Assembly: GCA_001683735.1 (NCBI GenBank)
Contig: LUGG01000045.1
Location: forward strand, 60,247-124,246
DNA length: 64,000 nt
Origin: Grifola frondosa
Taxonomy: Eukaryota > Basidiomycota > Agaricomycetes > Polyporales > Grifolaceae
Reading direction: 5' to 3'
A program made the position numbers and the translations under genes. Below the pieces are notes generated by a model. That model was given only the letters and a program-made list of their open reading frames with translations, was not told the origin of the DNA and made no database searches. Shown here in pieces: positions 40,666-63,116 of the stretch. Position 1 is the first letter of the stretch. Each line of letters opens with the position of its first letter.

Positions 40666-40880
40666 CACACCTTGCAGTCAAAACCGTCCGTAAGTAACGG
40701 GCAGCCGGGGGTAAAAAATACCGCTTTTCACGGAAGAGCCGGGCCCGGCCGGGATTCAAATTATACCTGTGTATGTGGAAGGGCCGGGATTCAATATTCC
40801 CATGATCATGGAAGGGCCGGGCATTGCATTAAACCCCATAAACACGGCACAGCCGGAAGGAAGAAAAAAATTGATAGCCA
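40666..40880 (+). repeat. Left terminal and subterminal repeats of K2
   Basis: After the terminal 15-mer and a CCGT-AAGTA-ACGG hairpin come repeated units of the type GGGCCGGGATTCAA: GGGCCCGGCCGGGATTCAAA (~40741), AAGGGCCGGGATTCAA (~40780), AAGGGCCGGGCATTGCA (~40812) and CACAGCCGGAAGG (~40849). They match, inverted, the units at 62820-63080. All are centred on CCGG. Confidence 0.85.
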
Positions 40881-41098
40881 CACTAAGACCGGTATCAGTT
40901 GAGTGGGTTTGTTTTTGGTCAGTTTTCACGTTGAACTATAGTTATTCAGCTTACCATACTCATCTATAACTGAAACCCGACCATTGTCAATATCATGATC
41001 AAAGTAACTGGCTTTCATGGAAGCTGGGTTTCATCTGTCATGTACCTCAGCCTTCATAGCTAAAGTAACCAGACTCTATGGTCAAGGTGTCCAGTTTT

Positions 41099-41372
41099 GG
41101 TAAAGAATAATCGAATTTCATAGCTAGAGCAATGGCTTTCATAGAGAATGCCGAATTACAGCACTGGTTGCTTTAATCACGAAACCCGGTGCACCTTGCA
41201 CCGCGATATGTTGATGCCGAAAGCCCAATATTTTTGCTGTGTAATTGATGCCATGTTCCGCCTCCAGAATCAAAAACTTCACCAGGCTTTGTGATTGAAG
41301 CAATGAGTGCTGTAATTCGGCATTCTTTATGAAAGCCATTGCTCTAGCTATGAAATTCGATTATTCTTTGTA
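41099..41372. repeat. Inverted repeat with ~92-bp arms in the left part of K2
   Basis: Arm 41099-41190 (TAAAGAATAATCGAATTTCA onward) pairs with 41281-41372 read backwards at roughly 90% identity, around a 90-bp loop. No coding sense on either strand. Transcripts through it would fold into a long hairpin. Confidence 0.82.
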
Positions 41373-42052
41373 AAAGCCGGGGACTTTAATAAATTTTTTG
41401 ATCTCGCATGCGATTCTTTTGTCATGAAGACCAGGCACTCTAAAGATGAATCCCGATGTATCCCATGCTGAAGCCAGGACCTTTTCATACTTGAGAGGTG
41501 GATCTCACTATAGATGTGGCTTTCAGAATGAAATGATAAGAGATTAATTCAATTTATCTTTATTAATAATTCTGATTTAATCTTATTTCCGATGCATAGT
41601 TTCATACATTGTAACATACCAAAATGTGATCACCAAAGCCGATATGAGTGAAACCAGACTATGAGGGTGATGAAGACCAAAATGACTGCTATGTAGTGGT
41701 CTCACTTGTTTATTTCCACTTCAGATGGCTTTGGAGCATTGTTCATGGACGATTACATTGAATGCTGATCAAATCAATACATTGTACAAACGTTACGCGC
41801 AATACAGGAGAATAATGCTCAGAGATCTTTCTTCTGTTTCTCCCTCAAATCCGGGAACGGCTTTCGAACTTGGTCTGCGGGCACCGGGTTGGCGAGGACA
41901 TCGGCTCCGACGAATCACTCATAACATCATCAGCCATCTCTCCTGGCTCATATGTCAACCGCCGAACCCTGACCATCTTCAGCTGCCTGCGCTTCACGAA
42001 ACGTGGAAGAGGCCTCCCCTGGAGGAACTGGTTGATCATGTAGTGGGTGAGA

Positions 42053-42697
42053 TTATCCTGACCGGGATTCGGGGAGGAGGGTGTTGTTTGGCCGCGTGCA
42101 ACAGCGTGGTCCGACGTAGACTCCAAGGCTGTGATGGCAAAGATGTCCTGGACTTCTTGGGGGTTGCTGGCGAAACCCGTCGTCTGGGATTGAGGGGACG
42201 GCATCCCGTTTCCATTCCACCCTCATGCGGTGAGCTTTGGGTGGACGTGGACCCGACTTCTGCATGCATGTCATTCTGTTGTAGCATCATGGGTGTAAAA
42301 CCTGAAAGCCGATGGGATTGAGCTTCCTCATCCACAGGATATGTTCCTCTAAAACAATCAACAGTGCATGGGAAAAGAGCATCATGAACTCGGTTTCAGC
42401 GTCACCATCCAACTCTCCCTCGAAATTCATCATCCCCACTAAGACTTCCATCCTCTCAGCCGAATGGAGCAGCAGTTGCACATTCTCTGTAATCCGGGAC
42501 ACTGCAGCAGTGCGTTCTGGAACTGGAACCCGGGCAAGGTATTCAGAATACAAACTGTGACAAAATACAAATTAGTAATTGTATATGATGTTTTTCAGCC
42601 ACTTACCCCTGCATGAGGTGCACGACCATGCGTGTCACACGGGCGCAAAAAAAACTTCATTCACAGGAAAAGCGGTGGGTGTACGGGGCGATTGCAT
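42053..42697 (-). pseudogene. Gene D1, small unknown protein of K2 (left copy)
   Basis: Minus-strand gene, start at MQSPRTPTAFPVNEVFF, intron after HLMQG (phase fits), then LYSEYLARVPVPERTAAVSR, VLVGMMNFEGELDGDAETEF and LFSHALLIVLEEHILWMRKL. It aligns along its length with gene D2 near the right end (AEWFIAETEQRQAEANQLEG and so on), including intron position. It needs a one-base change at a run of eight Ts (~42648) to read through, so it is either broken or mis-sequenced there. A second intron near 42297 would lead into a Pro/Arg-rich tail. All-helical, function unknown. The plus-strand frame 41725-42321 is its antisense shadow. Confidence 0.5.
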
Positions 42698-43411
42698 GGT
42701 AAAAGTTGCCTGGATCGATCTCGAGTAGCGACTCTTATATAAGTGAAAGCAGGTGAGATATTTTAAACATGAGAACCCTAATTTCCCAGATTAGTAGACC
42801 TCAGAATTTGGTGAAGAATTTGATGATCAAATGATAGTTCCAAATTGGTTTTTGGGATCGTATTAATTACCTGGCAGACTGAGGCCGTGCCTCTTTCAGA
42901 TGGAATTGGGTTCAGGAAGTCAAGCAGATTTTGACACGGTGAATCCCGATAGCCTGGCTCATAGAGATAAGATGAGAAGAACATTCAAATGAATATTCCA
43001 TTATATTCGATGTGGCTGTCATCTGACTGGACATATTTATAAAAACATCAATCATGTGCCGAGAGGTGGCCAGAAATTGAATGATGCTTACAACACATCT
43101 TCAGCGCTTCAAGTCATTCCCGGCTGTTCTTTGAAGTCCAATTGAGTTGCTGCTTCTAGCCTGTTCTTTTCGAGGGTTTGGCCGAATTGCAGTGCTACAA
43201 CGTTCAGTCCTAAAAGACGCTACACAAATCGAGTGATTATGGTTCAAAGCCAACTGAATAACATACATATCCCAAACCCGCTATCTCAAACCCGAGGTGT
43301 ATGACTGTGAATTGAATGAACGCGAACCCGAGATCGGCTTTGAGGTGTCAAATAGGCAGAAGCAAAGCAAAATGTTCACTAAGTGAATTGAAATGTTACA
43401 TAGGCGAAACA

Positions 43412-46010
43412 TCAGAAGCCTGAATGAAAATGTAACATAGGCCGAAACATAAAGCCCCTGGTATATGAAACATGTCCTTGTTCAAACCCTGCAGACTTGG
43501 CCTCCAAACCCGACCCATCTTTCACTACAATGTCCTTATCACTGGGTCCCAATTCTGGTGATCGCAGAGGTGATGTGCTTTTGTCCACGCGAAGAATCCC
43601 ATCTGCTTGAATCCCGGCCTGCTGCACCTGAGTGGAGGCTTCAGCATGAGGTCGGCTGGAACTGTCGAGGACCGTGATTCGAAGATTCTCAACTACGGCT
43701 TTCAGCATGTCATTCTCCATAGTAAGGTGCTCGATCTCGGCTTTTCGCCGGGGTTCAATGTTGGCAAGCTTGGTGATGGCTTTGTCGGCAATTATCTGGC
43801 CGCGCATAAGTTCGTCGACCATCGGTTCCATTGCATCCAGTCGCGGAATTGCCAATTGTATCTGTGGAATGGCCACCTGGATCTGGGGAATGATGGTTTC
43901 CACGAAAATGCGCCATGACACGATTAGATTCCTGGAATTGCTCCCAAATTTTGGCCCGGTCTTCTGCTGCGACACTTGGTCGCAGCTCTATCTCCCGACT
44001 TTGATAAGACCGGGTCTGATGCCATTGTCCCCATCTAAGAGCGGAGAATTCATCTCGATGTCATGGTCCTCGACATCAGGATGAGCTATGTGGGTTTGAA
44101 CTTTCAGCTGAATACCGAGAGAATAAGGTAATACTCACTCATGGCTTTGCGGCGCTTTGCTGGCCGTGCTGATGACGTGATCTCCTGGTCTTCATCCCCT
44201 GATGGGCCGGCTTGGCCATTGTGCTTGACGGAGGAGTGGCACTGATGCCTCAGATTCTTCAGATTCTGAGATTGCTGTGTGGGATTGGGCTTTCAGTGAA
44301 ATAGATACTCAAAAATGTTGGTTCTCACATCTAGCGCGACTGTGCTTGGGAGGACGTGGAGGTGAAACAATCTCCTCCTCTTCCTCCTCCTGAGGGGAAA
44401 CGGATTTGGGCCGTTTGATAAACTTCTTGGGTGGCGTAGCATCCAATTCTTGCTCTGATGGATGCTCTGTGTGGGATTCGACTTTAATATTCACAGCGCT
44501 CAACCAAAAATGACTCACCTGCAGGTTTGGTGCGCGGCTTTCGTTTTCCACCTTTCGGATCCATCTCTGTCTCTGAAAGTCATGTGAATAAGTGAAAGTA
44601 AATGATAGATGCACCTCACCTATCATTTTGCTCGGCTTTTTCTTGCCAGCCCCCTTTGATGTGGGTTTCGATGAGCTTTCGTTGGCTGCTTTTGCTGCTT
44701 TTGCTGCAACCCGTTTCAGCTCCTTTTCAACCCGGTCTTGCTCTAGCTCGTTCCAGTCTTTGGCGAGTGCGGCTTCCAGTTGAAGATTGCGAGGAGGAAG
44801 TATCCCCCCTTCTGCCAAACGTTCCTCCCTCGAACGGTTTTGCTCTGCCCACATCCATTTTCCTCCCTTTTTATCACGGCGTCCACTGAGGTTGCACGAT
44901 GTTTTGCTCCTCCGGCAGTTCATGCAGATAATGCTGCTGGTAAAGACATAACACGTCTCATGGCGAGTGATGCACTGCTGGCAAGTGATTTCCGAACGCC
45001 GGTGGTGAATGGCATGAACGTGAATCCCGCATCATCACTCACAGAACGCAAAAACTTTGGCGGCGGACGCCGTTCACCAGGCTTTCCACGCTTGACCTTC
45101 GTTTGCTTTGGCATGTAGTCGCCCTCTGGATCTTCTTCATCTTCATCAGGAACCACGAAGTCCTCGAGAACCTCTGACTTTGAGCCTGCGCCTCTCTGCG
45201 GCTTTCGGCTTGCCTGCTCTGGAGGAGCTGGAGGCAGATCTTCCACTGAGGAATCGTCTTCACTTGATATAATTTCCTTCGATTTTGGGGATGTTTGATG
45301 GTTTTGGATGGGTTGGCGGGTTTGGACACTTAAGTGAGGTGTAAATACGATTGTATATCGAACAGATTGACACACACCGGGTTTTGCAACCCCCTTTCCT
45401 TTGTCACGAGGGGCGTCTGCCATCTCAACATCACCCTCTTTGCCTGAGTTCCTTTCCACCCGGTCTTCAGCACGTTGACCAGATCGGCCCATCTTCTTGG
45501 CTGGTGGTGCGGGTTTGGGAGCCTTGGGCTTAGGTGGCTGAACCCGGGGTTCGATATCTGCCGCCTTTTGTCAGCACAGTCTGAAGTCAAAACAAAATCG
45601 CTTACAATCCTTCCACCAAACGTTCACATTCTCGTGAGCTGGGATTTCCTGCACAACGGTTTTTACCCAGGCGTGTTTTGCAATACGGGGGTCCTCGGCA
45701 CTGATGGCATTCAGATTCTTGACTCGATGGTCCTTGCTAGCGTCCTGAGCCTCGCATACGGCACTGAGAATCGGGGCCGGAATTTGAAAGCGCTTTCCCT
45801 GTTGGGCGAGTTCCCTCATCATCCTGAACAAAGCATTCTAAAAAATGAAATTAGCACCACTCCCATTCAAAGCCGGTGACTCACAAATTCAGTCCACCAT
45901 TGGGCAGCAAAGTCAGGATACCTCTCATGATCACGTTTCGGAGCAATTTCCAAAGCCGCACAGAGGGAGCCGGCATTGGTGTTGAAAGTGTTGACGTTGA
46001 TTTCAGACAT
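43412..46010 (-). CDS. Gene A1, Zn2Cys6-type cysteine cluster protein of K2 (left copy)
   Basis: Minus-strand multi-exon gene. Exon 1 (46010-45885) has 42 codons, MSEINVNTFNTNAGSLCAAL ending WWTEF. Exon 2 (45837-45606) encodes LSAVCEAQDASKDHRVKNLN and AWVKTVVQEIPAHENVNVWW. Both exons have exactly the lengths of those in A2. Then an acidic/basic linker and the cysteine cluster at about 44985-44880: EITCQQCITRHETCYVFTSS then CMNCRRSKTSC, spacing C-x2-C-x6-C-x8-C-x2-C-x6-C, which is the Zn2Cys6 binuclear cluster spacing. A Lys/Ala-rich helix (VEKELKRVAAKAAKAANESS) and Glu-rich segments follow, and a C-terminal coiled coil at 43975-43412 (ADKAITKLANIEPRRKAEIE). Likely a nuclear DNA-binding protein; binding to K2 ends is my guess. 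Divergent with B1. Confidence 0.65.
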
Positions 46011-46483: not shown

Positions 46484-47510
46484 AATGCCGTCTCAGATGA
46501 AAACCGATGTCGCTGGCCGTGGGCAATATTACCGAGACTCGAGTTCTATGGAGGTAGAGATGCAACTGGGAAATCTGACTGCTAGTCCAACACCGGAAGC
46601 CGATATCGACATGGGTAAAGTAAAATGTTATCTCTAATCATTTTTAGCTAATCATCCTTCATAAAGACTATGAATTAAATTCTCCACGATCCATAAATGA
46701 TAGTTATGACCTCGGTTCTGCACCCCAATCCCGCTCTCCCAGCCCAGTCTTTGAAGCGTATGATCTCGGTTCTGCACCCCAATCCCGCTCTCCCAGCCCG
46801 GCCACTGGAGAGTATGACCTTGGTCCCATACCCCAATTCCATGCACCCAGTCCTGGCCTCGAGTATGATCTCGGCTTTCCACCTCAATCCCGTGCTGTCA
46901 GCCCGGCATTCATCGACATCGACTATGACCTTGGTTCACCCATACACTCCCCTCTATCAGCCCAGGCTTTGATGGTATTGACCCCAGCGCCATTTTGCCA
47001 GAGTATGACCTCGGCTCTCCACTTCCTGAAGGCCATGATGGTTCGACATTCATTACATTTGAGAATCCTTCAGAAACCATCATGAATGAGCAAGCCTTAG
47101 AATATCTGCCCGATCGGATTCGAGTCCAAACCCAGTTGCTGTACAAACGCCGGCATGCAATCTCCCAGTTCAGGGAAATGACCGCAGATGTTGGGCAGAT
47201 CTTGCTTAGAGCAGAGGCTTTGGCGCAGTCAGCATCTATGGATGAGGTGGAGCACCAGATTGATAGCAACCCGTCTTTTGTGGAGGTGCTACCCTCCATC
47301 AGCAAGCTTCGTTATGTCACATATGAAGATCGCAAGTTTCTGGACAAGTCCGGCCTTCATTGCATCCAGCTCACAAAGCCGAGCCGAAACCCGTCTAATG
47401 CCGAGGAGGAGGATAGCTTGGATAAAGCCCTGAAACTTGGCAAGATTGATCATGAGGTGGATAGACAAGTGGATTTAAAAGGAAAGGCAGTTCAGCCACA
47501 TGGTCAATAA
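46484..47510 (+). CDS. Gene B1, YDLGSPP-repeat protein of K2 (left copy)
   Basis: Starts MPSQMKTDVAGRGQYY; intron after DIDM-G, then tandem repeats of about 22 residues, each beginning YDLGSAPQSRSPSP or a variant (seven between 46695 and 47025). The conserved helical core follows: LEYLPDRIRVQTQLLYKRRH, MTADVGQILLRAEALAQSAS and MDEVEHQIDSNPSFVEVLPS, then an acidic tail ending at TAA 47510. The frame changes once in the repeats (46930-46960), so this copy is either slightly damaged or has an unseen tiny intron. Its start faces that of A1 with about 470 bp between them, so the two genes may share a promoter region. The repeats look like disordered interaction motifs. Function unknown. Confidence 0.6.
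46700..47030 (+). repeat. Tandem ~66-bp coding repeats (YDLGSAPQSRSPSP units)
   Basis: Two neighbouring units near 46706 and 46772 are almost identical at the DNA level (TATGA-CTCGGTTCTGCACCCC onwards); the following units are more diverged. They encode the YDLG repeats of gene B1. B2 has four to five units with more variable linkers. Confidence 0.8.
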
Positions 47511-47686
47511 GTAGTATGAACTAGTTTAGTTGCACATGTCAGTGAATCCACTCAAAACCGGAATGTCGAACTCCAGATCAGTGCCGCATATCTATATCAT
47601 TACTGTCATGTATCAAAAGTTCATATAAATGATTCACATATCATCTATGCCTATGTCAGAAAATCGCATCAAAATAGTCAGATCTC

Positions 47687-50563
47687 TCACCTCTTGCCTG
47701 CGCGTCGAGGTGCAGGCTTTCGGACAGGCTTTCGACCAATTGCCTTCTTTGGTGGTTTTCTGGTGTTGTTCACGGAGGGAATGGGGCATTCAGCCTTTGT
47801 CGCAGCGCGGGTTTGGCGTCGAAGACCGTGGTCCAGCATTGGGTTCTGTCTCGCATCATGTTCCTCATCCAATTTCCGCTTCGTTCCCCGAGTTACCATC
47901 CTGCGAGCCGGTGATGGCTCACCAATGTCTGATGGTGATGGCTCATGGTGGGAGATAGAAGGCAGAAATGCCATATTCGCTTTGACTTTGGGGATGGAAT
48001 TGGGATCGATATTGAACCGGCTCTGATCCTCAACATCAACATCTGCCATGGACATATGATCATCATCCAGTAGCAATGGAGCTTGCTGTGGATGCACTGT
48101 TTCTGTCTCAGCAAGAATATCAATGTAAAATTGCTGTATCCGTCCAACAGGTTTCCCAGCGGTGAGCCGTCGTGGCTTAATAGCTGATACGATTTGTGCA
48201 GGTTTGGGAGAATGTTTGCCATTGAAACCGGATGGCCCGGCAATGGCGGTTCTGACAGCAATTGCTGAATTCCTCTTCACAATGGAAACACCTTGATCTA
48301 TAAAAGTTTCTGTGGGGTTTTGGGCCTCAATATACTCCTCCCACGTAATCCAAGATCTTGTCATCCGGCCACACATCTCCAGCAAATTCTGCACATCCTG
48401 GAAGGTATGCACTGTGGAATAGAGATGAGATGGAATATCGGTCGAAGTGTCATCTGGATCGGCAACCACAAACTGCGCAATTTTGAGATCTCGCAGCACA
48501 AGCCCAATGCTCAATGCCGCGAGGATTGCATTTTCGGGCTTGAAACTCGAAATGTCGGACTCCCATGTTTCCACCAGAACCGTCCAGTCAGCGAGAAATT
48601 TGAGCATTGTTTCAACGTCCAGATGGAATGATGGCGGAAGAACCGAATATGTGAAAGTCCAATCCCACGCTAGAGTTGTAGCTCCATCCGGCATTGCTGT
48701 TTCCAGGTCACCCTGCATGCTCAATGTTATTAATTAAAAACATTTAAGCAAGATTATACATACCGGCATTCGCGTGATGACTCGAATGAATGTCTGATAT
48801 AGGGCCTCATCAGACAAAGCCATGAGGAACACGCGACGGAGATGACCACTCTGGCCTGCCCAAGCTGGTGACTCGTCCTTTGCCACCTTCGTATTTACTC
48901 TGGCCACCGGCATTGGAAGAATTGCTTGGACTGGCTTACGGGATTGGGTAGGAACTTCCTGTTCGTCCATGTCCCCATCCATATCTTCAGAACTGTCATT
49001 ATCTAAAGACTCATCCCCACTGAATGCCTCATTGCTGTTCGACTCATCCATGATGCCTGCAACGGCTTTGGCCTTCCCCTTTCCCGTTGCATTTGAGTTA
49101 TGGTCAGCCTTTTTGGAGTGCCAGCGGAGTCCGGTTTCTGGGGAGTATACGGCATTGATTCGAATCGATGCTGCAATTCCATGTGAGAACCGAAAGACAT
49201 TGATGATGTCGGGATTCATCTGACGTCCTTGCCAATACCGGACTAACAGTTCTGCAGAGTCCCTGGTAATCTTTGATGGATCAGTAAATGTCATGCCTTC
49301 CGGAAGAGAACCAGGTTCGATATATCGATCAAATCCTTCCTTGTTCAGCCTGGCCCAAGGAATCCCATGTTTTTTTTCTTTTCCACAAGCCAAACCTGGT
49401 TTAAGAATTATTTAGCAAAGACGCCATGTTTCGGCTTTTAAGCATACCCCAGTGAATGCCCATGAATGTTCGGATGAAATTCTGCATTTCCAGCAAAGGG
49501 ACGTCTAACACTTGTGGCACAATTGGAATACCGGCATCGTCAAGCCCAAATGGATACGGAACCACCTTCGGTTTTACACTTGCCGCGGTCATCGCAGGAT
49601 TATCTTCAGCTACTTTTGCTGCTTGTTCTGGGTCTACGAACAATGTAAGCTGGAAGCCATTGTAAAAATCCTCAGCTTACGGAAACACATATGAGTGAAC
49701 TGTCCCCAAAGAGCATATGTTTCTGTTGCCCACTCCGGATACATCTGAGTAAACTTGCACCGGGTTTCACTGAACTTGTGGTTGAAATCATGCCTGCCGG
49801 CATTCGGGTCAAACAAAAGTCTGAAGAATGCTCATATTGGACTTGCCTGATCACTACCATTTCACCATTAGCATCTTCATGTCCAGTAAGCATGAAGATG
49901 TTGGCATTCGTTTGTAGCTTGACCATTCTAGCAAAATTGGCACACATCTCGGATAATTGTTCATCCGCGACGCTATTCAAAAACGTGAACATCGCGAAGG
50001 CCAAGATCTAAGGAAACTCACATCCTCTGCACCTTCACAGGTGGGCCTCTCTCATTCCATTCATCGGCTTTTTCATCATATTTTCTTCGTGTCCCCAACT
50101 CAACCTGACTGTACAGATAGCTACCAGCTGGCTGGTATGCTTTGATAAAATCTGCTGATCCCGGTCGGGCTTGACTGATTTCCGCTGCTCGATCAATGAT
50201 GTCTTGAGAGTGTTCTGCCCTCCAAACCCGGTAGCCGGTCCATTTGCGAGTAAGGTAATACTTGTCACTCGACTTGCCACTGCTCCCGGCTTTGCCCCTT
50301 TCCCTTTTGGCAAACCACCTATGTATCATCTTTGATAATGCCGTTAATAATACGTCTTTGTCATTTGATTCCGTCATGCTTACCTGCAGCATCTTTCCGT
50401 GAAATCCCTTCTCAGCCTCTTTTCTTCCTTCACAAAAATCTTTTGCAAGTCTCTTTCGAATTCGCTTTCGTTCAGACTTTAAACCCAGAAGATGTGTCTC
50501 AGCAGAACCTTCCAAAGCTTCAAGTTCTGTAGCGGTCAAGATGATCACAGTTCTGGAAGACAT
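47687..50563 (-). CDS. Gene C2, large conserved protein of unknown function in K2
   Basis: Minus-strand multi-exon gene from MSSRTVIILTATELEALEGS to a very basic C-terminus (KPPKKAIGRKPVRKPAPRRA). Exon 1 ends HGKMLQ; exon 2 is WFAKRERGKAGSSGKSSDKY through FIKAYQPAGSYLYSQVELGT to DEWNERGPPVKVQRM. Then come LSEMCANFARMVKLQTNANI, FTQMYPEWATETYALWGQFT, IPIVPQVLDVPLLEMQNFIR, GIPWARLNKEGFDRYIEPGS, MTFTDPSKITRDSAELLVRY, an acidic Ser/Asp region (SLDNDSSEDMDGDMDEQEV) and a C-terminal domain (47687-48724) with FHLDVETMLKFLADWTVLVE. About 850 residues. One frame break near 49825. The same family occurs in K3 at 37.7-40.1 kb. It starts 240 bp from the TET/JBP gene, on the opposite strand. No known domain recognised. 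Confidence 0.6.
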
Positions 50564-50804: not shown

Positions 50805-52055
50805 ATGTTTGAAACCATCTGGAACCTGAACTACACTGATGCTCTGTCACTGTACATGCTACAACTATTTACAATGCAAATCACTGCATCTGATGTGAAG
50901 CCCAGACCATCAATTGTCTTATCAACAGACATGGTATATGAGTGCATGAAGAGTGTTAAAATTCTTGTTCAGGCATTTAATAATCCAAGTAAGCTTGTCT
51001 TGGAACATCTTATCTTTTAAAGTTGATTCAATCATCATTTGTTGAAGTCAAAGTCGATTGGGACTTGGATCTTTATAATGACCACCTGGGGTTAAAGCCG
51101 ACAGGGAAAAACCACAAAATGGAAGAAGATCTCCGTCGAAGATTTCCACCTTTCCCACTGAAAACCGTCATTGACATCCCCGCAGTTTTGGTGGATAAGC
51201 ATGATCGGATCATGTGTTGGATTTTACCAGAAATCCTGATCGAAACCCGCCAGGTGGGCTTTGGACAACTGGCATTCATTTTCAGTGCCAACCTGTTTGC
51301 AGAGGAAAATCGCAGAATCCCTGAGAAAAATCGAGCCGGTATTGGAAAAATATACAAAACACCAAAAGCATGGAGATCAAATCCAGAGTTATTCAAGTGC
51401 GCCACCCGGTGCTCCTGGTTCATGCCGGGAATTGTGACATTGTCAGCTGCATGGTTTCAGCAAGGACATCAGGTATGTTTGAGCTGTCAAGAATTGACAC
51501 ATTGATGAATTTCAAATGTTGCAGACTGCATCATTCCAGCCGGAAATATCAGCTTCTATCCGAAAACACGTTGAATGCCAGGATTGGCTGCATTCCATGG
51601 GAGAATCAAATGCATTAATCAGCGGCATATTGCGGGTGATGCAACCGGAACTATACACAGCCGGTGTTGCTGCCCTTCGAAAGTTGGGGGAAGATTCTAG
51701 CTTGCAACCTCATATCTCCTCATGGACATCGGCTTTCAGTGCTATTCAAATCATTGCCAATCGGAACACTCCAAACCACCGCGACCATGCAGGTAGAGCA
51801 CCATGGTTGGATTTGCTACTCACCATAGGTGTCTATCAGGAGACATATCTGGATCTGCCAGGGATCGGAGTGAAAGTCGCATATGATCCAGGGACAATTG
51901 TTGGGCTATGTGGAAAAGTGCTTCTGCATGGGGTGGAGGCGACCCATGGGGAGCGGATCTGTATGGCATTTTTCATGTCAGCTGATATTTTACGACATGC
52001 CGAAGTTGAATTTCCTCATTGGATGAGCAGAAAGTATTACTGCAAGCAGGTTTAA
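50805..52055 (+). CDS. TET/JBP-family 2-oxoglutarate/Fe(II) dioxygenase of K2
   Basis: Three exons with good splice sites and matching phases: 50805-50988, 51048-51472 and 51525-52055; 379 residues, no frame break. The catalytic core lies in exon 3: SSWTSAFSAIQIIANRN, the Fe-binding HRD in PNHRDHAGRAPWLDLLLTIG (His288, Asp290), GIGVKVAYDPGTIVGLCGKV, the distal His in LLHGVE (His338) and the 2-oxoglutarate-binding Arg in GERICMAFFM (Arg347). This order fits the double-stranded beta-helix of TET/JBP enzymes, which oxidise 5-methylcytosine or thymine in DNA. Fungal members are known to ride on KDZ transposons. Directly upstream of, and co-oriented with, the transposase; divergent from gene C. 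Likely nuclear. Substrate is inferred, and the exact start codon could be further upstream. Confidence 0.85.
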
Positions 52056-52124
52056 CATGTGTATTTTGAAAAATGATTTTTGGGCCATACATATAAACAG
52101 CTTTGGGGCAGGGACTATGAGCCC

Positions 52125-55100
52125 ATGACTAGAAGAAAAACCATCCCAAGACGTCAGGTTCTGTCCCATAACAGAATCAGGCATGCCGAGTCTGATATTC
52201 ATGGCAACCGAGCCAAGGTAAAGAGGGTCACCAATCCCATGAAAACCGCGGACACTGCATATTTATCAATCCGGACGCCGCGAATGCAAACCTTCCAAAT
52301 TTCCAAGAAACCCTGCCAGATGCTGAGCCTTCTCATCGAAAAACGAAGGTTGGTGTGGCAAATTATGTATGGTGTTGACAAGCTCAAGTGAAAAATATGA
52401 TAACCAGAATCAAAATGACTTCATGCGAGACTGGTTGTGTCGAAAGCAGGCATTTTTGAATAGAATCACCGAAAATGATTATCCAGCAACCGGCCTTCGA
52501 TGTTCGGAATGTAACATTCGTGAGGGCAGCTGGCGATGTCTGGAATGCCTAGGCTCTCCAGTGACATGCATTGAATGTACTCGGCAAACACATCTACGGC
52601 TACCATTTCATCGAGTGGAATCCTGGACAGGTGATTATTTTCGGCCTGGATGGCTGCGAAATGTTGGAATAGAGTTGCATCTTGACACCAGGGAGGGAGA
52701 TGTCCTATCGAAAAAATGGGATGGGAAGCTGATAGGGAAGACGAAGAGGGAGAGGATGAAAACCGGATGGAAGAAGAGATGCCCAGCATCACACCAGCTG
52801 TTGGAAAGTCTTCGCGGACCATGGTAATGTTGATACCAGCGGGATTCATCATTTGGATGTTCACTGGTGTGGATGTCCCAATGCCGTGGAACCAGACATG
52901 CAACTTTTGGACATGGGTCTCTATCCTGCCAGCCATCAATATCCGCAAACTGCATTCCATTTCGTCTACTGGACGACTTCTTGCTTGACAATAAGGAATG
53001 CAAAACCGCAGCTCTGAACTACTATAACAAACTCCGAAGGATTACATCTCCTGGCTTTCCACACACAGTGCCGGTATGTTTTCCCAGTATCGACGGGACT
53101 CAATATTCAAGTTGCTGATCAAAGAAAGAAGGATCGGTACCGGGAACTTCTGCGAACAAGTAGGCAATGGAGAGAGCTGAAAACCGCAAGATGGAGTGGG
53201 TTAGCACACAATCCAGATTCTGTGAAAGGACCTGGGAGTCATGCTATCTTCTGTCCGACCTGTCCCCAACCTGGAGTTAATCTGCCACCTGATTGGGAAC
53301 TTGATCCTCATAGGTTAGTCTGAATCCCGGTCTGAAGATGGTATTAATGAGTTTACAGATGGAAATACCTGCGGAGCTTTGTGATGGATGGCAACTTCTC
53401 TGCTGAGCATATGAAGATGCGAAAGCCGAATGATGATGTTGTGCTTCGTGATGGAGAAGGGTTCATGGTGAAGGATCGAGAATATAAACAGCATTTGAAA
53501 GTTGCAAAGGAAACAAAGGAGGCAAGTGCCAGATCATCCATTGCAGAAATGCAATTATTCTGACCTTAAGTTGCACAGCGATCAACCTGCAATGACCATG
53601 CAGCAGTAAACCAGGCAAATGCCAATCGTCACAACTTAGAAGCCACTGGCATTGGGGCTGCTGCATGTGCTCGTCATGGATGCTTTGTACCTCATTCTGT
53701 TGTTGACTTTCAAAAGGGAGAGAGGTAAGCACATCACTGGGACCCGGTATTCGATGCTGATGAACAATAGACAAAAGAACATGGATTACACCTTGAATGG
53801 AGCTTTTGCTACACTGTGCGGAATCACCCTGGTCCTGCTACTTTATGACATCATGTGCCAGTACAGCAAGCACCTGAAAGCCCGGTTTGCAGGGAATCCA
53901 TACCTCAAGATGCCACCCGGTTTGAAGCTATTGCACGGTATTGGGCTTTTCCACGTTCATGGTCATCAAGACAAATTTTTGCAAGATATTCCCCGAATTT
54001 CATTGAGGGCGCCGGTCAAATTGATGGAGAAATTATCGAAACCCTCTGGGCTCCGCTCAATCACATTTCTGGAAGCACACGTGGAATGTCAACAGCACAT
54101 CGGAAAGAAGTCATTGATGATCACATGAATGATTCAAATTGGAAGAAGTTGACCAGATCCAGTAAGTTGACAGACCATGAATATTCTCGGCATTCACTCA
54201 CTGTTCGAAACTCAGTTCCGTCCCTAATCCGAAAGTATCGGAAGGCCGAAGCGGGCCAAAAGCTTCATGGGGAAGCATTAGAACAGGCCAATCTCAATGC
54301 CGATCCAGATGATCTCAACATTTGGATGGAACAGTATCTCTGCGCTATGTCAGAGAGAGACAAAAATGTGGAAGTAATGGACATCTTTGAAGTGAAAAAG
54401 CGTGAAGGTCAGTGAGATGAGTTTTGGATGTAAGAAATGGGCCAGAATCATCTGATTTTGCTTACAACAGCTCCCACTCGGAATCAGATTCAATTAGAAC
54501 TTGCCAAAGCTGAGCAGAGTGAGGGACTCACAAGGGGCGCGGTTTCCTGGTTAGCATCTGGAATTCGAATACAGGAGTCACAGTGAGTGAAAAATATGTG
54601 AAATTTGTTTTAAACTGAAAGTGCATTAAGGTCCTTGTTAGCCACAGAGATACGAAAAGCGGGCCGAAGTCCAACAGTCAGTGAGAGGTTGCTGGTTTTG
54701 GATCGTCAGCAACGTCTTCAAACCCGCATTAACAATTTCCAAAAACAAGCTATTCAATTTATGTTGAATACCGAGGACGACGGCATGGAGGTGAATGCCG
54801 AATGGGAGGACACTGGTGAGGGTGATACGGAACCTGATGATATGGATAATATCCAGGATGAGGTACCCGCCGAGAAATTTGTTCTCAATATGCCATCCAC
54901 CATAGGTTGGGAGGAGTGTAAAAGACTTCAACTCCAAACTGTCGCCAAGGAAGAAATAGCACTTCGGAAAGGCCAAATGGATGATGCTCTCCATCGAATC
55001 CGGCTGGCTCTCGGGTATAAAGCATTCTTATTTCGAACTCGGGTGCGAGAAGCAAATAGCCAGCGAGAGAAACTCCGATCATGGGATGATGTGCATCTCT

Positions 55101-55675
55101 CGCAAACTGAGGTGGCTCAGCAATCTCGAGTTTACAGCCTGGCGCGTCAGGCTCTCCTATCCTTTTATCCAGCCCATGCAGATGAAAGGCGAGAAGATCG
55201 AAAGACGATAATTGATCGATACCAGACTCTCAAACCCGAGGACTTCAAAGTAGAAACGGCTTTGGTGGAAGCTCATACCCGTGGTTTGAGGAACAAACCA
55301 CTGGCATGGTTTTGGACAATGGATTTGGAAGGAGACAGCAACGGAAGTGACTGGATGCGGGAATGTAAGTCAATCTCACATACTACTGAATCCTGGTTTT
55401 TACTATTGTCTGCAGTTCATCGAGTTAACTGGCTCAGGGCCAAGGCAAGATATGATCGCTGGAAGGAGGAATACATTATCGTCACCTCAGAAATGGAGTG
55501 GACCATCAGATTCTTTCGTCACCAAGCACAGATCTGGAAAACCCGAGCAGAACAATCCGATAGCAATGGTCACCAGTCTTATGCCAGAAAACAGTCTGCA
55601 ATGTGGAAATCTTTTGCAGATTCTGCAGTGGCAGACTTTGGTGATGTTTTGAACAAAGATCTTTCTGTTTTGTGA
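52125..55675 (+). pseudogene. KDZ transposase with CxC2-like zinc domain (K2), several frame breaks
   Basis: N-terminus MTRRKTIPRRQVLSHN. The CxC2-like cysteine cluster is at about 52499-52625 (LRCSECNIREGSWRCLECLG, CIECTRQTH). Then GIHHLDVHWCGCPNAVEPDM, LLDDFLLDNKECKTAALNYY, RYRELLRTSRQWRELKTARW and FCPTCPQPGVNLPPDW. The RNase H-fold motifs follow: MDGNFSAEH (~53382), ARHGCF, LLLYDIMCQYSKHLKARF (~53840), GIGLFHVHGHQD, GQIDGEIIETLWAPLN (~54018) and a helical C-terminus (54641-55672). Introns: GT-AG near 53075, 53315, 53729, 54414, and a GC-AG intron at about 53522-53578. Single-base frame breaks at about 52683, 52826, 52962 and 53965 separate otherwise conserved blocks. Unless these are assembly errors, K2 cannot move by itself. 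Confidence 0.88.
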
Positions 55676-56612: not shown

Positions 56613-56763
56613 CAGAAATGGTCTATATTTTCATGCTAAAGCCAGTGTATGTCACTTGTCTGATTCAAATACCGAACACCGTGTATTTTTGGCATTGCAA
56701 CGGTCTTCAAACTTTCTGTTATATAAGGATACAATGAAAAATTGAAACCCATAAACATGGCCA

Positions 56764-57779
56764 TCATGCACCCCCAATTTCATTTTCAAGACCAAATCTA
56801 AGTGATTTAATCCCGTGCTCAGCCCGCCACCTACTGGCCTCCTGCAGAATCTCAGTTATCTTCTCCTCTGAGGGGAGCTCTGTCCGAAACCCTTCACTCA
56901 TACTGGCTTGATATGTTACCTCATCCATGGAGGCAGACTCCGATATATTTACCGCCCTGCTCTTCAGCTTGGTCATCTCTGTCGTCATTCCCGGGAGGAG
57001 CAGGAGATCCCGTCGGGATTTAATCAGCATGCGTTGTCGCACACGGATTCGATCCGGCAAATATTCTTCGGCAGTATCCCGGAAAGCCTCATGTGGAGGA
57101 TATTCGAAAAGGAGGTATCTCCGGTTGTCGCGTGAGACTGTTGCTGTATGACAGACCTGCTCTTTGTAGATGAAACCCGGCTTCGGTTTTTTGTGAAACT
57201 CTGGCATGACTGGCAGAACAGGGACTCGGTATTCGCGATTATTGGGATAGACCATCCGGCGTGGAGGAAGAAATGCGTTGAGAGCTGCACAGTGCGGTGG
57301 ACATTCGAAATCATGTTCAGCATCTGGGACGGGGTCGAGCGCATCCGGGTTCAGTGGAGGATTTGGCTTGCTCAATGAAACAGAGTTGTCATCTGGCTGT
57401 GGAAGAGGTGGAGAACCGAGATCATAGTAATCATCATCCGGTTCTGATGGAGGTGGAGAACCGAGGTCGTAGGTTATGTCAAAATTTGGCGTGATAAATC
57501 GGGATTCGGGAGGGGAACCGAGGTCATAATCAACATCCTCTGGCAGAGGCGAACCTAAGTCATAGTCTACATAATGGACAATTAGCTATATTTAAAGTTT
57601 CTGAGACAGACTATATTACCCATTGTATCATCCACCGGGTCTGAACTAGGAGACCGATTTCCAACCTCCCGCTCCACCTCTGGTAAACTCGAGTCCCTGT
57701 CGGCTTGCTGCATAGAAGGCAGACTGGTTTTCATGCCGAAAATTGACTGAGATGAACCACGGTTGAGTTCCGTAAACAT
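56764..57779 (-). CDS. Gene B2, YDLGSPP-repeat protein of K2 (right copy)
   Basis: Minus-strand paralogue of B1. Exon 1 (57779-~57624) reads MFTELNRGSSQSIFGMKTSL then RDSSLPEVEREVGNRSPSS, matching RDSSSMEVEMQLGNLTASP in B1, with an intron at the same place. Repeats follow: VDYDLGSPLPEDVDYDLGSP, YDLGSPPPSEPDDDYYDLG. Then HCAALNAFLPPRRMVYPNNR, EEYLPDRIRVRQRMLIKSRR, LPGMTTEMTKLKSRAVNISE and ASMDEVTYQASMSEGFRTEL, ending at 56764. The reading is open throughout, so this copy looks better preserved than B1. It is divergent from A2 with about 480 bp between starts, the same arrangement as B1/A1. Confidence 0.65.
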
Positions 57780-58255
57780 GACACGGTTTTGACGATGAAC
57801 AGAATCTAAAGCCACATTGTTTAGAAAATCACTGAAATATAATGTCAATATATAAATACTTTTATGCGTAGCTGTGATGGTTGGACAACATCAAAATATG
57901 GCACCAGTGAAAATCAGAATGCTTACACATTCTGAAAGCCGAGGGAATGTTTATGAAGGTGTGACGGCCTAAAAATGAAATAAATTTAATCATAAAGATG
58001 GCACGTGACATGTTGACATACCGCTTGGTTGAAGGTGCTGGAAGAGAGGTCTCAGAAAGGGTTTGAAACTGGCTCATGTTTATCTCACAACTTAAAACTC
58101 CGACGTATTGTTGATGAGTCAGCATCCCACGATCACGTGATGTGTGTCGAAATCCTTCATAACCTGTTCCTCAGTTGTGACTTTTTATTCACCCTCTTTC
58201 CTCACCACTTCATCACTCAAATCTAAAACTGCTCTGCTGCTTTATATTATCAATC

Positions 58256-60280
58256 ATGTCTAACATTGATCTCAAGAATTTCAACACCAATGCCGGATCC
58301 CTGTGTGAGGCCCTAAAGATGGCTCCGAATTTGTCAAGCCCAGTGTATAAAGAGTTCGAAATCCGCTGGTGGACGGAATTCGTAGGTGACTCCCTTTTGC
58401 TCGAAGTCTTTCTGATACCTTCTCCAGGACATCTTATTTCGCATTATGTGTGCAATGAACATCAAAAAACAGCAATATCGAATTCCATCTGTACTTCTCA
58501 GTGCAATATGTGAGGCTCAGGATGCATGGAAAGAAAAGCGAGTCAAGACTTTACAATCTGTTCATGCCGAAGATCCCCGGATTAATTGCCACCCCTGGGT
58601 GAAAGCCATCAGTAAGGATATCCCAGCTCACGAGGACATCAATTCCTGGTGGAAGGCCTGTATGTTGGTTTTCTTTCTCAATAACGAACACTAAAAGGGA
58701 GAAGATTCCTGAAGACTGGGTCCCTGCACCTCTGCTGAACACGGGGATGGGAAACACTGCCAGCATGAACCCCGGCCCTGCTGCTAAAAAACGTGTTCAT
58801 GAACACTACACGGAAAACAACTCACCAAAAAAGCCGCGCAATGCAAATGTGAATGATGGGGAGATGGAAGCCGACACCTTCATGCAGGAGCCAGATCATG
58901 TCATCCAACTCCAGCCGCAGCGAAGGCAGATGATGCAGGATGTGTATATACAGTCATTGGCTAGTAAGTGATGCAAGTTGTATATTCTTACTAATTGCAT
59001 TTACAGTTGTAAATTGCAGGCAAGAAATCTACTGCCAGGAAGGAGAGAACTGTCAGCATGAGTGAGGATAAATCTGCTAGTTTCAAACCCACTAGCACGA
59101 AGCCGAAACCACATGAACCATTGTTCCTCCCATCAGATAGCGATAGTCCAACTCCATTGGTCAGTGATCGCCCAATACCGATCAAACTGCGTCAGCGTGC
59201 CAAACCCGGGCAGAGACTCCCAGGCCGGTTTTAAAACTTTCGGTGAAGCAGTGCTTATTTCCGGATGCTCAACTGCTAAACATAGCTAACAGGAAATTAC
59301 CTGCCAAAAGTGCACAACCCGCAAGGAAACATGCTATATTTTTGATGGTAGCATTACTTGCATGAACTGCAGGAAGAATAAGACCTCCTGTAGTCTCAGT
59401 GGTCGAAAACAGAACATGAAACCATCATGGATGCTGGAGAAGCAAGTCCATGCACAGGAGGCACACTTGGCAAGGGGAGAGAAACTTCCGTCTCGCAATG
59501 TAGATCTTGAAAAGCTGCTGTTGATAGCTTGGGATCAGCAAGAGGATGAACGGCTTTCAAACTACGTGAACACCGAAGAAGCTGGAGCTCATGATGGGCA
59601 ACCCGGGAAGGCCGGGGGTCGAAGTCGATCGAAATCCACTCCCATCAACCAAGACATTCCAGTCAGGGGTCAGTCAGAATATTATTTTATCTGTTTAACC
59701 TACAATGTCGAAAATCAGGTACCTCAAAGGTCGGCAATCTGGAAGCAGATGAGAGCTCAGTTCTATCTGTCGGCATTGTGATCCCAAAACTGGAAGAATT
59801 TATCCTGCCAAACGCCGAAAGACTGCAATCCCTCGGATTTGGCAAACAGGGGGAATAATGAATGATTCTGATGCCACCAGCGATAGTGATGTTTATACAG
59901 AACTAGTTCCGCCTTCTCCAGTTGCCAACCCCTCCCCTCCTGGTACTACTAGATCAACGGATAACCAGCAAGTAATTCGCCCACCATCACATTGGAATAC
60001 CAACAGCATAAACATTTGGAATGAATTCCGGGATGAAACGCAAAAAATTGCCCAGTTAACGAACACCATCCTACTACCCGAAGTTCTGACATTGGGTGGG
60101 CATGATAAAGCCCTGCCACAAGCTGGAGTGATGGCAAGTGTAGCTTTGTTGCATGTTGGTTTGTCTTACTGGGTGCAAACAGATCGAAACCGGGGCCAAA
60201 GCCAGTTTGGAGCAGCTTGCTGCCTATAATGATGCTGTTGAAGCTATCACCCAAGCCCTTTCACGTAAGCTCTAGTCCTG
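58256..60280 (+). CDS. Gene A2, Zn2Cys6-type cysteine cluster protein of K2 (right copy)
   Basis: Exon 1 58256-58381 (MSNIDLKNFNTNAGSLCEAL...WWTEF, 42 codons) and exon 2 58428-58659 (LSAICEAQDAWKEKRVKTLQ, WVKAISKDIPAHEDINSWW) have the same lengths and phases as in A1. A Pro-rich acidic linker (58700-59230) is followed by the cluster at about 59292-59395: EITCQKCTTRKETCYIF, then CMNCRKNKTSC (C-x2-C-x6-C-x8-C-x2-C-x6-C). A Gln/Glu helix (VHAQEAHLARGEKLPSRNVD) and a Ser-rich region follow, then SINIWNEFRDETQKIAQLTN, which matches KIWEQFQESNRVM in A1. The 3' end is uncertain. Expected to be a nuclear DNA-binding protein. Confidence 0.65.
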
Positions 60281-60480
60281 AAACTTCCCATACTGTTGAA
60301 GCAGACCGGATTTCATATTTTCAGCTGCAGATTGAGATTATGCTGATGTGGGACTGGCTTCGAAGTCGGTTTATGGGATTTGTCTATGGCGGTGTGTGTG
60401 TGGATAGGGCGTATGTTGCGGTGGTGGTTGTCAGAAGAGATATGATGGATGATGATGTTGAACATTAGAACCAGAGATTC

Positions 60481-61135
60481 ATTGGGAATTACCCACAACA
60501 TTTGAAATGGGTCTGAACCTGAAAGATGCATTATCACCAGATGATTGATTTCAAAGTTATCACAGATATTCTTCATCACTTACTAAATATCAGATTGAAA
60601 CACGTGGCTTTCACGATACAATGTGAAACTCAGCCCTATCATCGTGAAGGCCGGTGGCTTTGATGACAGTGCCTACAAAAGCCGAGTATTGACTGCAGAC
60701 GAGTCATTTAGCTGAACAAGTGATTCACTGTCAAGACCGGTCAAAACCAGATACCTACATGTCCAGACTGATATGGTGACTCATTGGCTTTAATATGTTC
60801 GGCAGTCCTTCCAATCCATCACGACTCCAGGTATTCCCATCAAATCCCGCAGGCATAATGTGGAATCTTAGCAGGGACTGAGTGAATACCGATATTCTAT
60901 AGCTCAATGGTTTTGACTTGAATTTGGGCAGGATTACCGAGGTTCACAGAAAGATTTGATTCTGATATGTGATACAAATACACCGGGAGCAATGGCAATT
61001 CCTTTCTCCCCACCAAGAAAACAAAAATGTTCAGCCGACCAAAAAGCCCGGTTCTTCGGCATGGCGTTTGAAAAATCGTCGGATCGTGGCATTGGAAGCG
61101 CCGGGGAGAAGATCGGTGGACACTCGGCATGCTGC
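60481..61135. other. No gene seen between A2 and D2
   Basis: Non-coding stretch rich in the words GCCGG, CCGGT and AAAACCG; frames at 60897-61130 and 60956-61246 have no motif. Confidence 0.4.
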
Positions 61136-61146
61136 CTAGTGACCAG

Positions 61147-61748
61147 TCATGCTCCGCCGGACCGGCGTTTGCGCGTATGGTGTAGAAGGATGGCTTTCCG
61201 CCTCAGATCCTCCGGCTTCAGAATAGCCGCTCGGCGAGCTGGGTGAACCGAAGCTCCCATACCCACTGAGGAGCGTTCGCGGCGGGGGCGGGGTTTGAGG
61301 GGCGATGTACTCTGGGGAACCGGCAGCATCGGGGCCTAGGAAAAGCTGATAATCAATGTCAACATATTTGCCAATGGAATAAAAGGAAATCTTACCAAAA
61401 CCGATTGCGTCATTGCAATAGCTGTTGCAAACCCGACGTACACCTCAATGGTGGGAACATCTTCAGCGAAAATCTGCGGTTCCTCGTTCGAAATCCGAGC
61501 ACACATCGCAGCCATCACGGTGGACCTCCTCATCACATCCTTCACCCTATCCAACACGCCACCTTCCAACTGATTCGCCTCCGCCTGGCGTTGTTCCGTT
61601 TCAGCAATGAACCATTCCGCATAGGGGCCATTGCTAGGAAAGATTTAGTATATATCACCTAAAAACCGGTCACTTACCGCTTGCGAATAATTTCAAAAAC
61701 CTTGGATTCCACAAAGTTGAAAAAAAAACGGTCATTTGCTGGAAACAT
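61147..61748 (-). CDS. Gene D2, small unknown protein of K2 (right copy)
   Basis: Minus-strand gene: MFPANDRFFFNFVESKVFEI ending IIRKR, intron (61677-61634 approx.), NGPYAEWFIAETEQRQAEAN, VLDRVKDVMRRSTVMAAMCA, EEPQIFAEDVPTIEVYVGFA and TAIAMTQSVL, a second intron, then a very basic tail (PLKPRPRRERSS ... TRKRRSGGA). It aligns with D1 including the first intron. The frame is intact with normal GT-AG sites. Predicted all-helical with a basic tail; function unknown. It lies next to the right end of K2, in the place mirrored by D1 at the left end but on the same strand. Confidence 0.55.
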
Positions 61749-61799
61749 GGTGGGTTCACGACGGAGAGTAGCCGCGAGTTATCCATGATGGCAGAAGGA

Positions 61800-62815
61800 T
61801 GACAGAATCGATCTCTGGAGAGCTCTATATAACTGGAATGATATTATTTATGTGGAAGATGTGTTGGTGTACATGATAAAGTATTCAACATAGGTGTCTG
61901 AGGTCCGTGGAAATAGATGCACATCTTTCGCCGACGATCAATCGTGTCACTGTTATAGATGTATGTGAGCACCAATTTAATGATGACCTACCAAATATGA
62001 CACTAAAATAAACATACGATATTGGGCTGCAGGAACATTATGTATCCAAAACTTGGAATTTTGGTGGTTTTCTGGCCGTTTGAACGGTGAGACCAAAATT
62101 TGATGAGTCTCATCTTCCATGCTTCTTGAACTGAATGCCACCATACAAAAAGCCTGGGACAAATATAGTGAGAAGCACAGATGGATAAAAATGCTATCTT
62201 CATGCACGCGGAGCCCGATGGATAAACCATGCATGACATGCGCCATGCAGTCCCACAAAGTTAGAAGCACCAAAGATCCGGCAATTGTATTGCAAATATC
62301 CACCAATAGTACAAAGGCCATTCAAAAGACTGGGAATTGTGTACATCCTCTGCGTGATTGATAAGGGATCAAAAAGCCATCACATGATGAGATCAATCAA
62401 GAAATGCAATGTAGATATGTCCGGGATTCACATGAGAGGAACCGGCTTTCGCAATCTCCCAATGAAAACCGATTAATGTTTTTGTAAACCGGCCACATTG
62501 AATGTGAATGCCGATGTATTATGGGATGAACCCTGACCCACAATCATGAACACCGGTTACCTTAGCACAATTATCGAGATGATGGGGTTAAGCCACACAG
62601 GTACTGGTCCATCGGCATTGATGCATAATGTGTATCTCAAATCCCGGATGGGGATCATTAATCCCGGGTGCCGGCTTGGACATTAGTAAAATACTGTGAA
62701 AGTGAAACTGTATATAAAAGGTTGGTTGTGATGTTGCCTGAGATGTGTGTGATCAGGATCATGAATGATGCTGGCCACACCATGATCATATGGTGATGGC
62801 CCTACAATAATCATG
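61800..62815. other. Non-coding right part of K2
   Basis: No domain in the frames at 61977-62321 (-) or 62119-62476 (+). The segment contains scattered GAACCGGC, AATCCCGG and GCCGAT words that become denser towards the end of the element. Confidence 0.4.
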
Positions 62816-63116
62816 ATTCAATCCCGGCCGCTCGAGATTCATGGGAATCAAAACCATACGCAAACCCCTAGCATACATTTATTCTCCTTTCCGGCTGCAC
62901 CATGTTGACGGGTTTGATGCATTCTTCGGCCCTTCCGTGATATATGAGAATATTTTGCATGCTGGCCCCTCCATGACTATGGGTATATTTGAACCCCGGC
63001 CCATCCACATACACAGGTATAATTTGAATCCCGGCCGGGCCCGGCTGTTCCGTGAATAGCAGTATTTTGGATCCCCGGCTGTCCGTTACTTACGGATGTT
63101 ATGACTGAATGGGCTC
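62816..63116 (-). repeat. Right terminal and subterminal repeats of K2
   Basis: Inverted counterpart of 40666-40880. It contains TTCAATCCCGGCCGC (~62817), CCCGGCCCATCCACATACAC (~62996), TTTGAATCCCGGCCGGGCCC (~63025) and GGATCCCCGGCTGTCCG (~63069), the hairpin CCGTTACTTACGG (63083-63095) and the terminal TGACTGAATGGGCTC. Alignment with the left end runs for at least 110 bp with small gaps. Confidence 0.85.

What the first reader, a model, noticed from the sequence alone, without database searches (positions are those of the whole stretch)
40666..63116. A complete 22.45 kb KDZ element carrying a TET/JBP dioxygenase and at least seven other genes
Seen: both ends, target duplication, TET/JBP with HRD...H...R, KDZ transposase and accessory families A-E. 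Known: Iyer and colleagues described KDZ transposons associated with TET/JBP genes in mushrooms. New here, as far as I can judge: the full gene layout, the accessory families and the exact ends. Inference: the element brings its own DNA-demethylation enzyme, perhaps to keep its CpG-rich ends open for transposition or expression.
Basis: partly seen in the sequence, partly recalled or inferred. Interest (0 to 1): 0.9.

Follow-up and report, generated by a model that had tools for sequence, protein, structure and literature searches.

The report
Jumping gene carrying a demethylation enzyme
This is a complete 22 kb mushroom-type jumping gene that carries, besides its own transposase, an enzyme expected to erase DNA methylation and several helper genes; the basic pairing was already known, but the set of helper genes and the methylatable motif clusters at its ends look new.

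Summary
Window 40666-63116 is a complete KDZ DNA transposon with a 7-bp target duplication (AATGGCA), a TET/JBP gene with intact catalytic residues and a CxC2-KDZ transposase. Near-identical copies sit at two other sites, and a paralogous empty site exists. TET-KDZ pairing and complete TET+ Kyakuja elements with 7-bp duplications are already published (Iyer 2014, recalled; Kojima 2025, read). Not found in print by my searches: (1) an accessory set (genes A, F, E and a Zn2Cys6-like gene C) that accompanies TET+ KDZ elements in this genome and is almost absent near TET- KDZ hits; (2) a conserved pair of unequal termini, CACACCTTKCAGTC and GAGCCCATTCAGTC, marking nine TET+ elements of 16.8-22.5 kb plus small derivatives; (3) arrays of CCGG, a CpG-containing motif, in the last 200 bp of the ends. 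Substitutions between young copies are mostly CpG transitions, so the host probably methylates the element. Best explanation: an autonomous transposon with its own anti-silencing enzyme, whose TET keeps CpG-containing end and promoter sites usable. Mobility is shown by sequence; demethylation is inferred, and one weak comparison of CpG content speaks against protection. New variant of a known kind.

The parts
40659..40665 (.). left target-site duplication AATGGCA
   Evidence: repeated at 63117-63123
40666..40865 (+). left end, 5'-CACACCTTGCAGTC, imperfect inverted repeat (about 145-155 bp, 87-88%) with 7 CCGG
41845..42697 (-). small end gene (called E by position only); no similarity to the gene at 61157-61748 found
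   Evidence: model uncertain
43412..44060 (-). possible exons of an unknown gene downstream of C (ORFs only)
44309..46010 (-). gene C, left copy: conserved N-terminal part and Zn2Cys6-like Cx2Cx6Cx8Cx2Cx6C at 44894-44983
46485..47510 (+). gene D, left copy: YDLGSP repeats
47687..50563 (-). gene A, 865 aa spliced model (one intron very short, so uncertain), divergent from TET; found upstream of 18 of 22 TET hits in the genome
   Evidence: no Pfam match
50805..52055 (+). TET/JBP dioxygenase, 379 aa spliced model (50805-50988, 51048-51472, 51525-52055; the middle exon may hold one more short intron)
52125..55675 (+). CxC2-KDZ transposase; window record has single-base omissions, C6 record of the same insertion reads 1031 aa
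55905..56566 (+). gene F, unknown; after A the accessory gene found most often near TET
56764..57887 (-). gene D, right copy
58256..60300 (+). gene C, right copy; Zn2Cys6-like motif at 59302-59391
61157..61748 (-). gene E (right); the 8 rows found outside this element all lie within 15 kb of a TET hit
62917..63116 (-). right end, 5'-GAGCCCATTCAGTC read inward, 5 CCGG
63117..63123 (.). right target-site duplication AATGGCA

Best explanation
An autonomous cut-and-paste KDZ (Kyakuja-like) transposon that carries its own anti-silencing module. Shown by sequence: exact ends, 7-bp duplications, several recent insertions, intact TET catalytic residues, an accessory gene set shared with diverged elements, and CCGG arrays at the ends. 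Inferred: the transposase (CxC2 Zn cluster) and/or the element's Zn2Cys6-like protein C bind the CCGG/CGG arrays; host CpG methylation of these sites would block binding and silence the promoters; the element-encoded TET oxidises 5mC there so the element can be expressed and moved.
For: Three insertions with different flanks (C38/C6, C18, C28) at 99.1-99.5% identity. Exact 7-bp duplications in 9 of 14 end pairs read, per-pair chance 6e-5. Of 20 KDZ rows near TET 18, 15, 11 and 7 have A, F, E and C within 15 kb, this element's own copies included; of 58 others 0, 1, 0 and 0. CCGG in the end 200 bp: 7/5 (window), 6/8 (family 2), 8/10 (element at C2:1069791); at most 11 of 1000 dinucleotide-preserving shuffles reach the observed value in the 8 ends tested. 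Six of 9 clean substitutions between copies are CpG transitions, 5 of 8 leaving out one that separates two records of the same insertion. The four ends of two elements with imperfect duplications have CCGG 1-3 and CTGG+CCAG 4-6; the 18 other paired ends counted have 4-10 and 0-4, one unpaired left end 3 and 5. CcTet residues HRD, G331 and D337 have counterparts (roles from PMC12730594).
Against: No methylation, expression or binding data. The CpG transitions show that the element is not fully protected, and in loci of 3.3-3.8 kb CpG observed/expected was lower, not higher, at 12 TET+ loci (0.65-0.99) than at 8 TET- KDZ loci (0.74-1.22; age not controlled). In C. cinerea oxidised 5mC also lies on retrotransposons, from which Kojima speculates that oxidation is not target specific (PMC12730594). 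KDZ elements in Cryptococcus transpose with no TET mentioned in the passages read (PMC12810828), so TET is probably not needed for the chemistry. CCGG arrays could serve the transposase alone; the ends of the families are related, so their arrays are not independent cases, and one 3.3 kb derivative has only 1 CCGG per end. Gene C passes the cysteine spacing but not the Pfam Zn_clus cut-off and was detected near only 7 of 20 TET-near KDZ rows.
Confidence: 0.6

Rival explanations
1. The TET is a passenger or acts genome-wide for the host; the transposon only dispersed it, and end CCGG arrays are plain transposase-binding sites.
For: Oxidised 5mC in C. cinerea covers other transposons and centromeres too (PMC12730594). 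Two small derivatives without a TET or KDZ row keep the arrays (5-7 CCGG per end) and have exact 7-bp duplications, so the arrays look like cis signals of transposition. TET+ loci are not richer in CpG than TET- KDZ loci.
Against: One TET between each of nine end pairs; 15 of 22 TET hits have both A divergent upstream and KDZ downstream, KDZ at 2.1-2.3 kb in 16 of 17 cases; catalytic residues kept.
Confidence: 0.24
2. TET makes 5hmC/5fC or removes 6mA as a positive mark on the element (self-recognition or transcription) rather than removing silencing.
For: CcTet acts on 5mC and 6mA, and both diagnostic residues have counterparts here; Kojima raises the 5hmC option.
Against: CpG decay fits 5mC as the relevant mark; no 6mA data.
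Confidence: 0.12
3. Composite chance cluster: a KDZ element inserted among unrelated genes, ends misjudged.
For: Large size; several genes without known domains.
Against: Independent insertions with the same ends and different duplications; accessory genes recur in diverged elements.
Confidence: 0.02

Closest known systems
TET+ Kyakuja transposons (Kojima 2025, PMC12730594; Laccaria bicolor Kyakuja-1/2_LB)
   Same: KDZ transposase with AG-type TET, 7-bp duplications, 5' end CA
   Different: The text gives 5'-CA..TG-3' and no TIRs for the two Laccaria families; here 5'-CA..TC-3' with an imperfect inverted repeat of about 145-155 bp, CCGG arrays and an accessory gene set. Their Table S1, Figure 1 and sequences were not seen, so sizes and extra genes there are unknown to me.
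KDZ/TET association and divergent HMG protein (Iyer et al. 2014 PNAS; recalled, paper not held)
   Same: TET next to KDZ in mushrooms, extra proteins including an HMG-like one
   Different: Ends, duplications and an accessory set tied to TET+ elements are, as far as I recall, not given there; gene A may be their HMG protein.
Zisupton, Dileera and Cryptococcus KDZ1-3
   Same: KDZ transposase; TIRs in KDZ1-3 (139-241 bp; PMC12810828)
   Different: 8-bp duplications (4-8 bp for KDZ2 and KDZ3); KDZ1-3 carry CxC1 and are about 9-11 kb long; no TET mentioned in the passages read
Arabidopsis VANDAL/VANC anti-silencing transposons (PMC5735166 abstract and passages, PMC10398659 abstract)
   Same: Works alike in outline: element-encoded anti-silencing and dense short-motif arrays in its non-coding DNA
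   Different: Proteins not known to be related; that VANC is no dioxygenase is recalled. VANC binding was shown by experiment, here binding is inferred

Membership tests
KDZ superfamily | KDZ transposase domain PF18758 over cut-off | tested here: met
   178.2 bits on the C6 record of this insertion; three partial matches over the cut-off in the window record
KDZ superfamily | CxC zinc cluster before the transposase | tested here: met
   CxC2 PF18803 90.0 bits, cut-off 27
TET+ Kyakuja | 7-bp target duplication | tested here: met
   9 of 14 end pairs exact, including the window
TET+ Kyakuja | 5'-CA..TG-3' termini | tested here: not met
   5'-CACACC...GGGCTC-3' in the window and C18 (C28: right end only) and in family 2
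TET+ Kyakuja | no terminal inverted repeats | tested here: not met
   imperfect inverted repeat of about 145-155 bp, 87-88%
TET+ Kyakuja | position in the KDZ transposase tree | not tested
   no named Kyakuja, Dileera or Zisupton reference set was at hand
Zisupton/Dileera | 8-bp target duplication | tested here: not met
   with the ends set as here, none of 14 end pairs agrees over 8 bp
TET/JBP dioxygenase, AG type | HxD, distal H, R; counterparts of CcTet G331 and D337 | tested here: met
   alignment to 7vpn, E 3.2e-23
TET/JBP dioxygenase, AG type | oxidation of 5mC | not testable with these tools
   needs an assay
HMG-box protein (gene A) | HMG fold or Pfam match | tested here: inconclusive
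   no Pfam match; single-sequence model pLDDT 52
Zn2Cys6 protein (gene C) | Cx2Cx6Cx5-12Cx2Cx6-8C spacing (recalled pattern) | tested here: met
   both window copies and the C14 homologue, the only 3 matches without a stop in six frames of 64 kb + 24 kb
Zn2Cys6 protein (gene C) | Pfam Zn_clus over cut-off | tested here: not met
   11.1 and 8.8 bits, cut-off 21; model pLDDT 47 uninformative
VANC-like sequence-directed anti-silencing | element protein binds end motifs and lowers methylation | not testable with these tools
   needs binding and methylation assays

The most novel reading that the evidence does not exclude
A sequence-directed, enzymatic anti-silencing transposon: its Zn2Cys6-like protein C recognises CGG/CCGG arrays at the element's own ends and brings or guides its own TET there, so that demethylation is aimed at itself, a fungal counterpart of VANC with catalysis.
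Probability: 0.17. Interest if true: 0.85.

Novelty: new variant of a known kind. Interest (0 to 1): 0.58.

Why it matters
Why transposons carry methylcytosine oxidases is open. Here one genome offers TET+ and TET- elements of the same superfamily, small derivatives without the TET or transposase, exact ends and a short methylatable motif, so the anti-silencing idea can be tested directly. The accessory set marks proteins that may work with TET.

Tried and rejected
Tried without result: protein search of gene A in the 5.8 billion proteins, no hit at E<=0.001 although 7992 candidates were scored, so the other two searches were not spent. AlphaFold on gene A exon 2 and on the Zn stretch gave pLDDT 52 and 47; not used, no fold search made. 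The general CpG-richness of the ends was tested and dropped. CpG content of 12 TET+ loci against 8 TET- loci (0.65-0.99 against 0.74-1.22) does not show protection and is confounded by age. Differences between records are enriched at CpG (window against C6: 24 of 66 events against 10.7 expected), also next to CC; they may be base-calling errors at modified sites or mutations, so I do not lean on the indels. C6 as a second insertion was rejected (same right flank). Of the 14 end pairs, 5 are not exact: C8 (6 mismatches; its right flank equals that of C2:3499546, so a join is suspect), C2:3413745 (2), C2:3127792 (1), C2:3124716 (7, alternative left end for the same right end) and C27 (5; flanks are reverse complements of each other, probably an assembly palindrome). 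I labelled the ends of C2:3413745 and C2:3127792 old after seeing their imperfect duplications and low CCGG counts in the same output, so the decay comparison is not blind. One search also lists four pairings of like ends (two on C2, one each on C27 and C32), which I set aside; the C27 one was read. The 22 TET hits include two records of the studied insertion (C38, C6). On re-filing I lowered two odds slightly (0.62 to 0.60, 0.18 to 0.17) and raised the passenger rival (0.22 to 0.24) because the CpG-content result against protection had been left out of the main evidence.
Full report
What was checked. The window is C38:60247-124246 of an unnamed 39.06 Mb assembly of 64 contigs. I did not identify the species; the mushroom origin is inferred from the KDZ/TET content and the nearest solved relative, CcTet of Coprinopsis.

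Ends and copies. The element matches C18 from window 40666 to 63117 at 99.45% and C28 from 59600 to 63116 at 99.2%; C28 starts inside the element. C6 matches 40727-64000, flank included, at 99.6%, so C38 and C6 are two contig ends covering one insertion. The duplication is AATGGCA in the window and ACTATAC in C18. The two flanks continue without the element on C2, at 92.9% over 36142-40663 and 89.0% over 63117-63910. That target is itself an older element of the same kind: a gene A relative lies at window 37768-39917, and the C2 copy has gene A and TET relatives on either side of the empty site; no TET match was found in the 884 bases of the window right of the element, so its TET side is inferred from C2. 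A GAGCCC terminus sits at window 31632.

Genes. Order from left: end gene (-), C (-), D (+), A (-), TET (+), KDZ (+), F (+), D' (-), C' (+), E (-). TET gives Pfam Tet_JBP 78.5 bits; KDZ and CxC2 are over their cut-offs on the C6 record, which reads 1031 aa without interruption after intron removal; the C18 and window records do not. TET in turn reads well in the window and not in C6 and C18. Since window and C6 are the same insertion yet differ at 66 places in 22.4 kb, I take this as assembly noise; no single record that I read shows every gene intact.

Accessory set. Of 22 TET hits, 18 have A upstream in divergent orientation (at 1.1-2.7 kb or 4.7-5.1 kb), 17 a KDZ downstream on the same strand (2.1-2.3 kb in 16 of 17), 15 both. 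Outside the element itself, 27 of 30 A rows, 14 of 21 F rows, 8 of 8 E rows and 6 of 7 C rows lie within 15 kb of a TET hit. Of 58 KDZ rows without TET within 15 kb, 0, 1, 0 and 0 have A, F, E and C; of the 20 rows with TET, 18, 15, 11 and 7 do, this element's own copies included. D was found in this element only. Gene C has the cysteine spacing of fungal Zn2Cys6 proteins in both copies and in a relative on C14 that is 41% identical over 39 residues, but Pfam does not call it.

Termini and family. A relative on C14 is 16801 bp long, with duplication TTTCTCG and the same two end types. CACACCTTNCAGTC occurs 24 times and GAGCCCATTCAGTC 40 times in the genome, the reversed control 0 times each. 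Inward pairs of unlike ends mark nine elements with one TET hit and one typed KDZ row (16.8-22.5 kb; one has a second possible left end that would make 24.9 kb) and three small pairs with neither (3.3, 4.3 and 4.6 kb); four pairings of like ends were set aside. Exact 7-bp duplications were found in 9 of 14 pairs read, 7 of them among the nine TET+ elements.

End arrays. In the last 200 bp the window has 7 and 5 CCGG, against an internal mean of 1.0; 0% and 0.4% of internal windows reach these values; family 2 has 6 and 8 against 1.5 (0.2% and 0%). Shuffles keeping dinucleotides reach the observed value in 0 to 11 of 1000, over 8 ends. Ten further ends, chosen by their similarity to the family-2 end and so not independent, hold 4-11. 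CpG in other contexts is not raised. The four ends of two elements with imperfect duplications hold 1-3 CCGG and 4-6 CTGG/CCAG. That CGG is the half-site of many Zn2Cys6 proteins is established knowledge, recalled here. Two small derivatives without a TET or KDZ row keep the arrays and have exact duplications, a third (3.3 kb) has 1 CCGG per end and an imperfect duplication; so the arrays probably belong to the ends needed in cis.

Methylation traces. Of 9 clean substitutions among copies, 6 are CpG transitions, where 7.5% of bases lie in CpG; leaving out the one that separates two records of the same insertion, 5 of 8, P about 1e-4. Bases 22001-32000 of the window have CpG ratios of 0.16-0.32 against 0.78-0.97 in the first 14 kb. 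Both suggest CpG methylation of repeats in this host; direct data are absent. Against protection by TET: CpG ratios of 12 TET+ loci (0.65-0.99) are not above those of 8 TET- KDZ loci (0.74-1.22).

Literature. Kojima 2025 (PMC12730594; outline, parts 1-5 of 7 of the text and the figure legends read; supplements not read) describes complete TET+ transposons, among them Kyakuja with 7-bp duplications, 5'-CA..TG-3' ends and no TIRs, and proposes escape from silencing. Iyer 2014 is not held and is cited from recall. PMC7641404, PMC12810828, PMC8290104 and PMC8889193 were seen in passages; PMC5735166 in abstract and passages, PMC10398659 in abstract. Searches (one search found no paper) listed no paper that, by its title and the start of its abstract, describes an accessory set or a Zn2Cys6 gene on TET transposons. 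This does not exclude closed papers or supplements.

Verdict. The finding is real and precise. Its core is known. The accessory set tied to TET+ elements, the unequal terminus pair and the CCGG arrays make it a new variant and give a testable mechanism. What is shown: mobility, ends, gene set, motif arrays, CpG decay. What is inferred: binding, demethylation, and their link.

Noticed in passing
window 14138-18486: A 4349-bp derivative with the same two terminus types, about 1.8 kb inverted repeats (98.7%), exact 7-bp duplication CCGTCAT and no stop-to-stop ORF over 174 aa; by eye the flanking ORF looks like a reverse transcriptase.
   Followed up: partly
window 31632-40665 and 63117-63910: Remnant of an older element of the same kind (gene A relative at 37768-39917); judged from its C2 copy, the studied element sits between that element's A and TET genes, a nested insertion.
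   Followed up: partly
end of C38 and end of C6: The two contig ends overlap by about 23.3 kb at 99.6%; probably one locus assembled twice.
   Followed up: yes
window 2273-2655, 24939-25320, 25615-25994, 30332-30724, 30957-31339: A repeat of about 383 bp also present twice on C2:3208001-3218000, once inserted with an overlap of about 9 bp that looks like a target duplication.
   Followed up: no
C27:10406-14758: Both ends of CACACC type and flanks that are reverse complements of each other: probable assembly palindrome.
   Followed up: no
C8:1784057-1800856 and C2:3499546-3516325: Two elements share the right flank but not the left one; suspect join or recombination.
   Followed up: no
window 22001-32000: CpG observed/expected of 0.16-0.32, far below the first 14 kb: heavily decayed repeats.
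   Followed up: no
differences between window and C6 records: Discrepant sites are enriched at CpG (24 of 66 events, 10.7 expected), perhaps base-calling errors at modified bases.
   Followed up: partly
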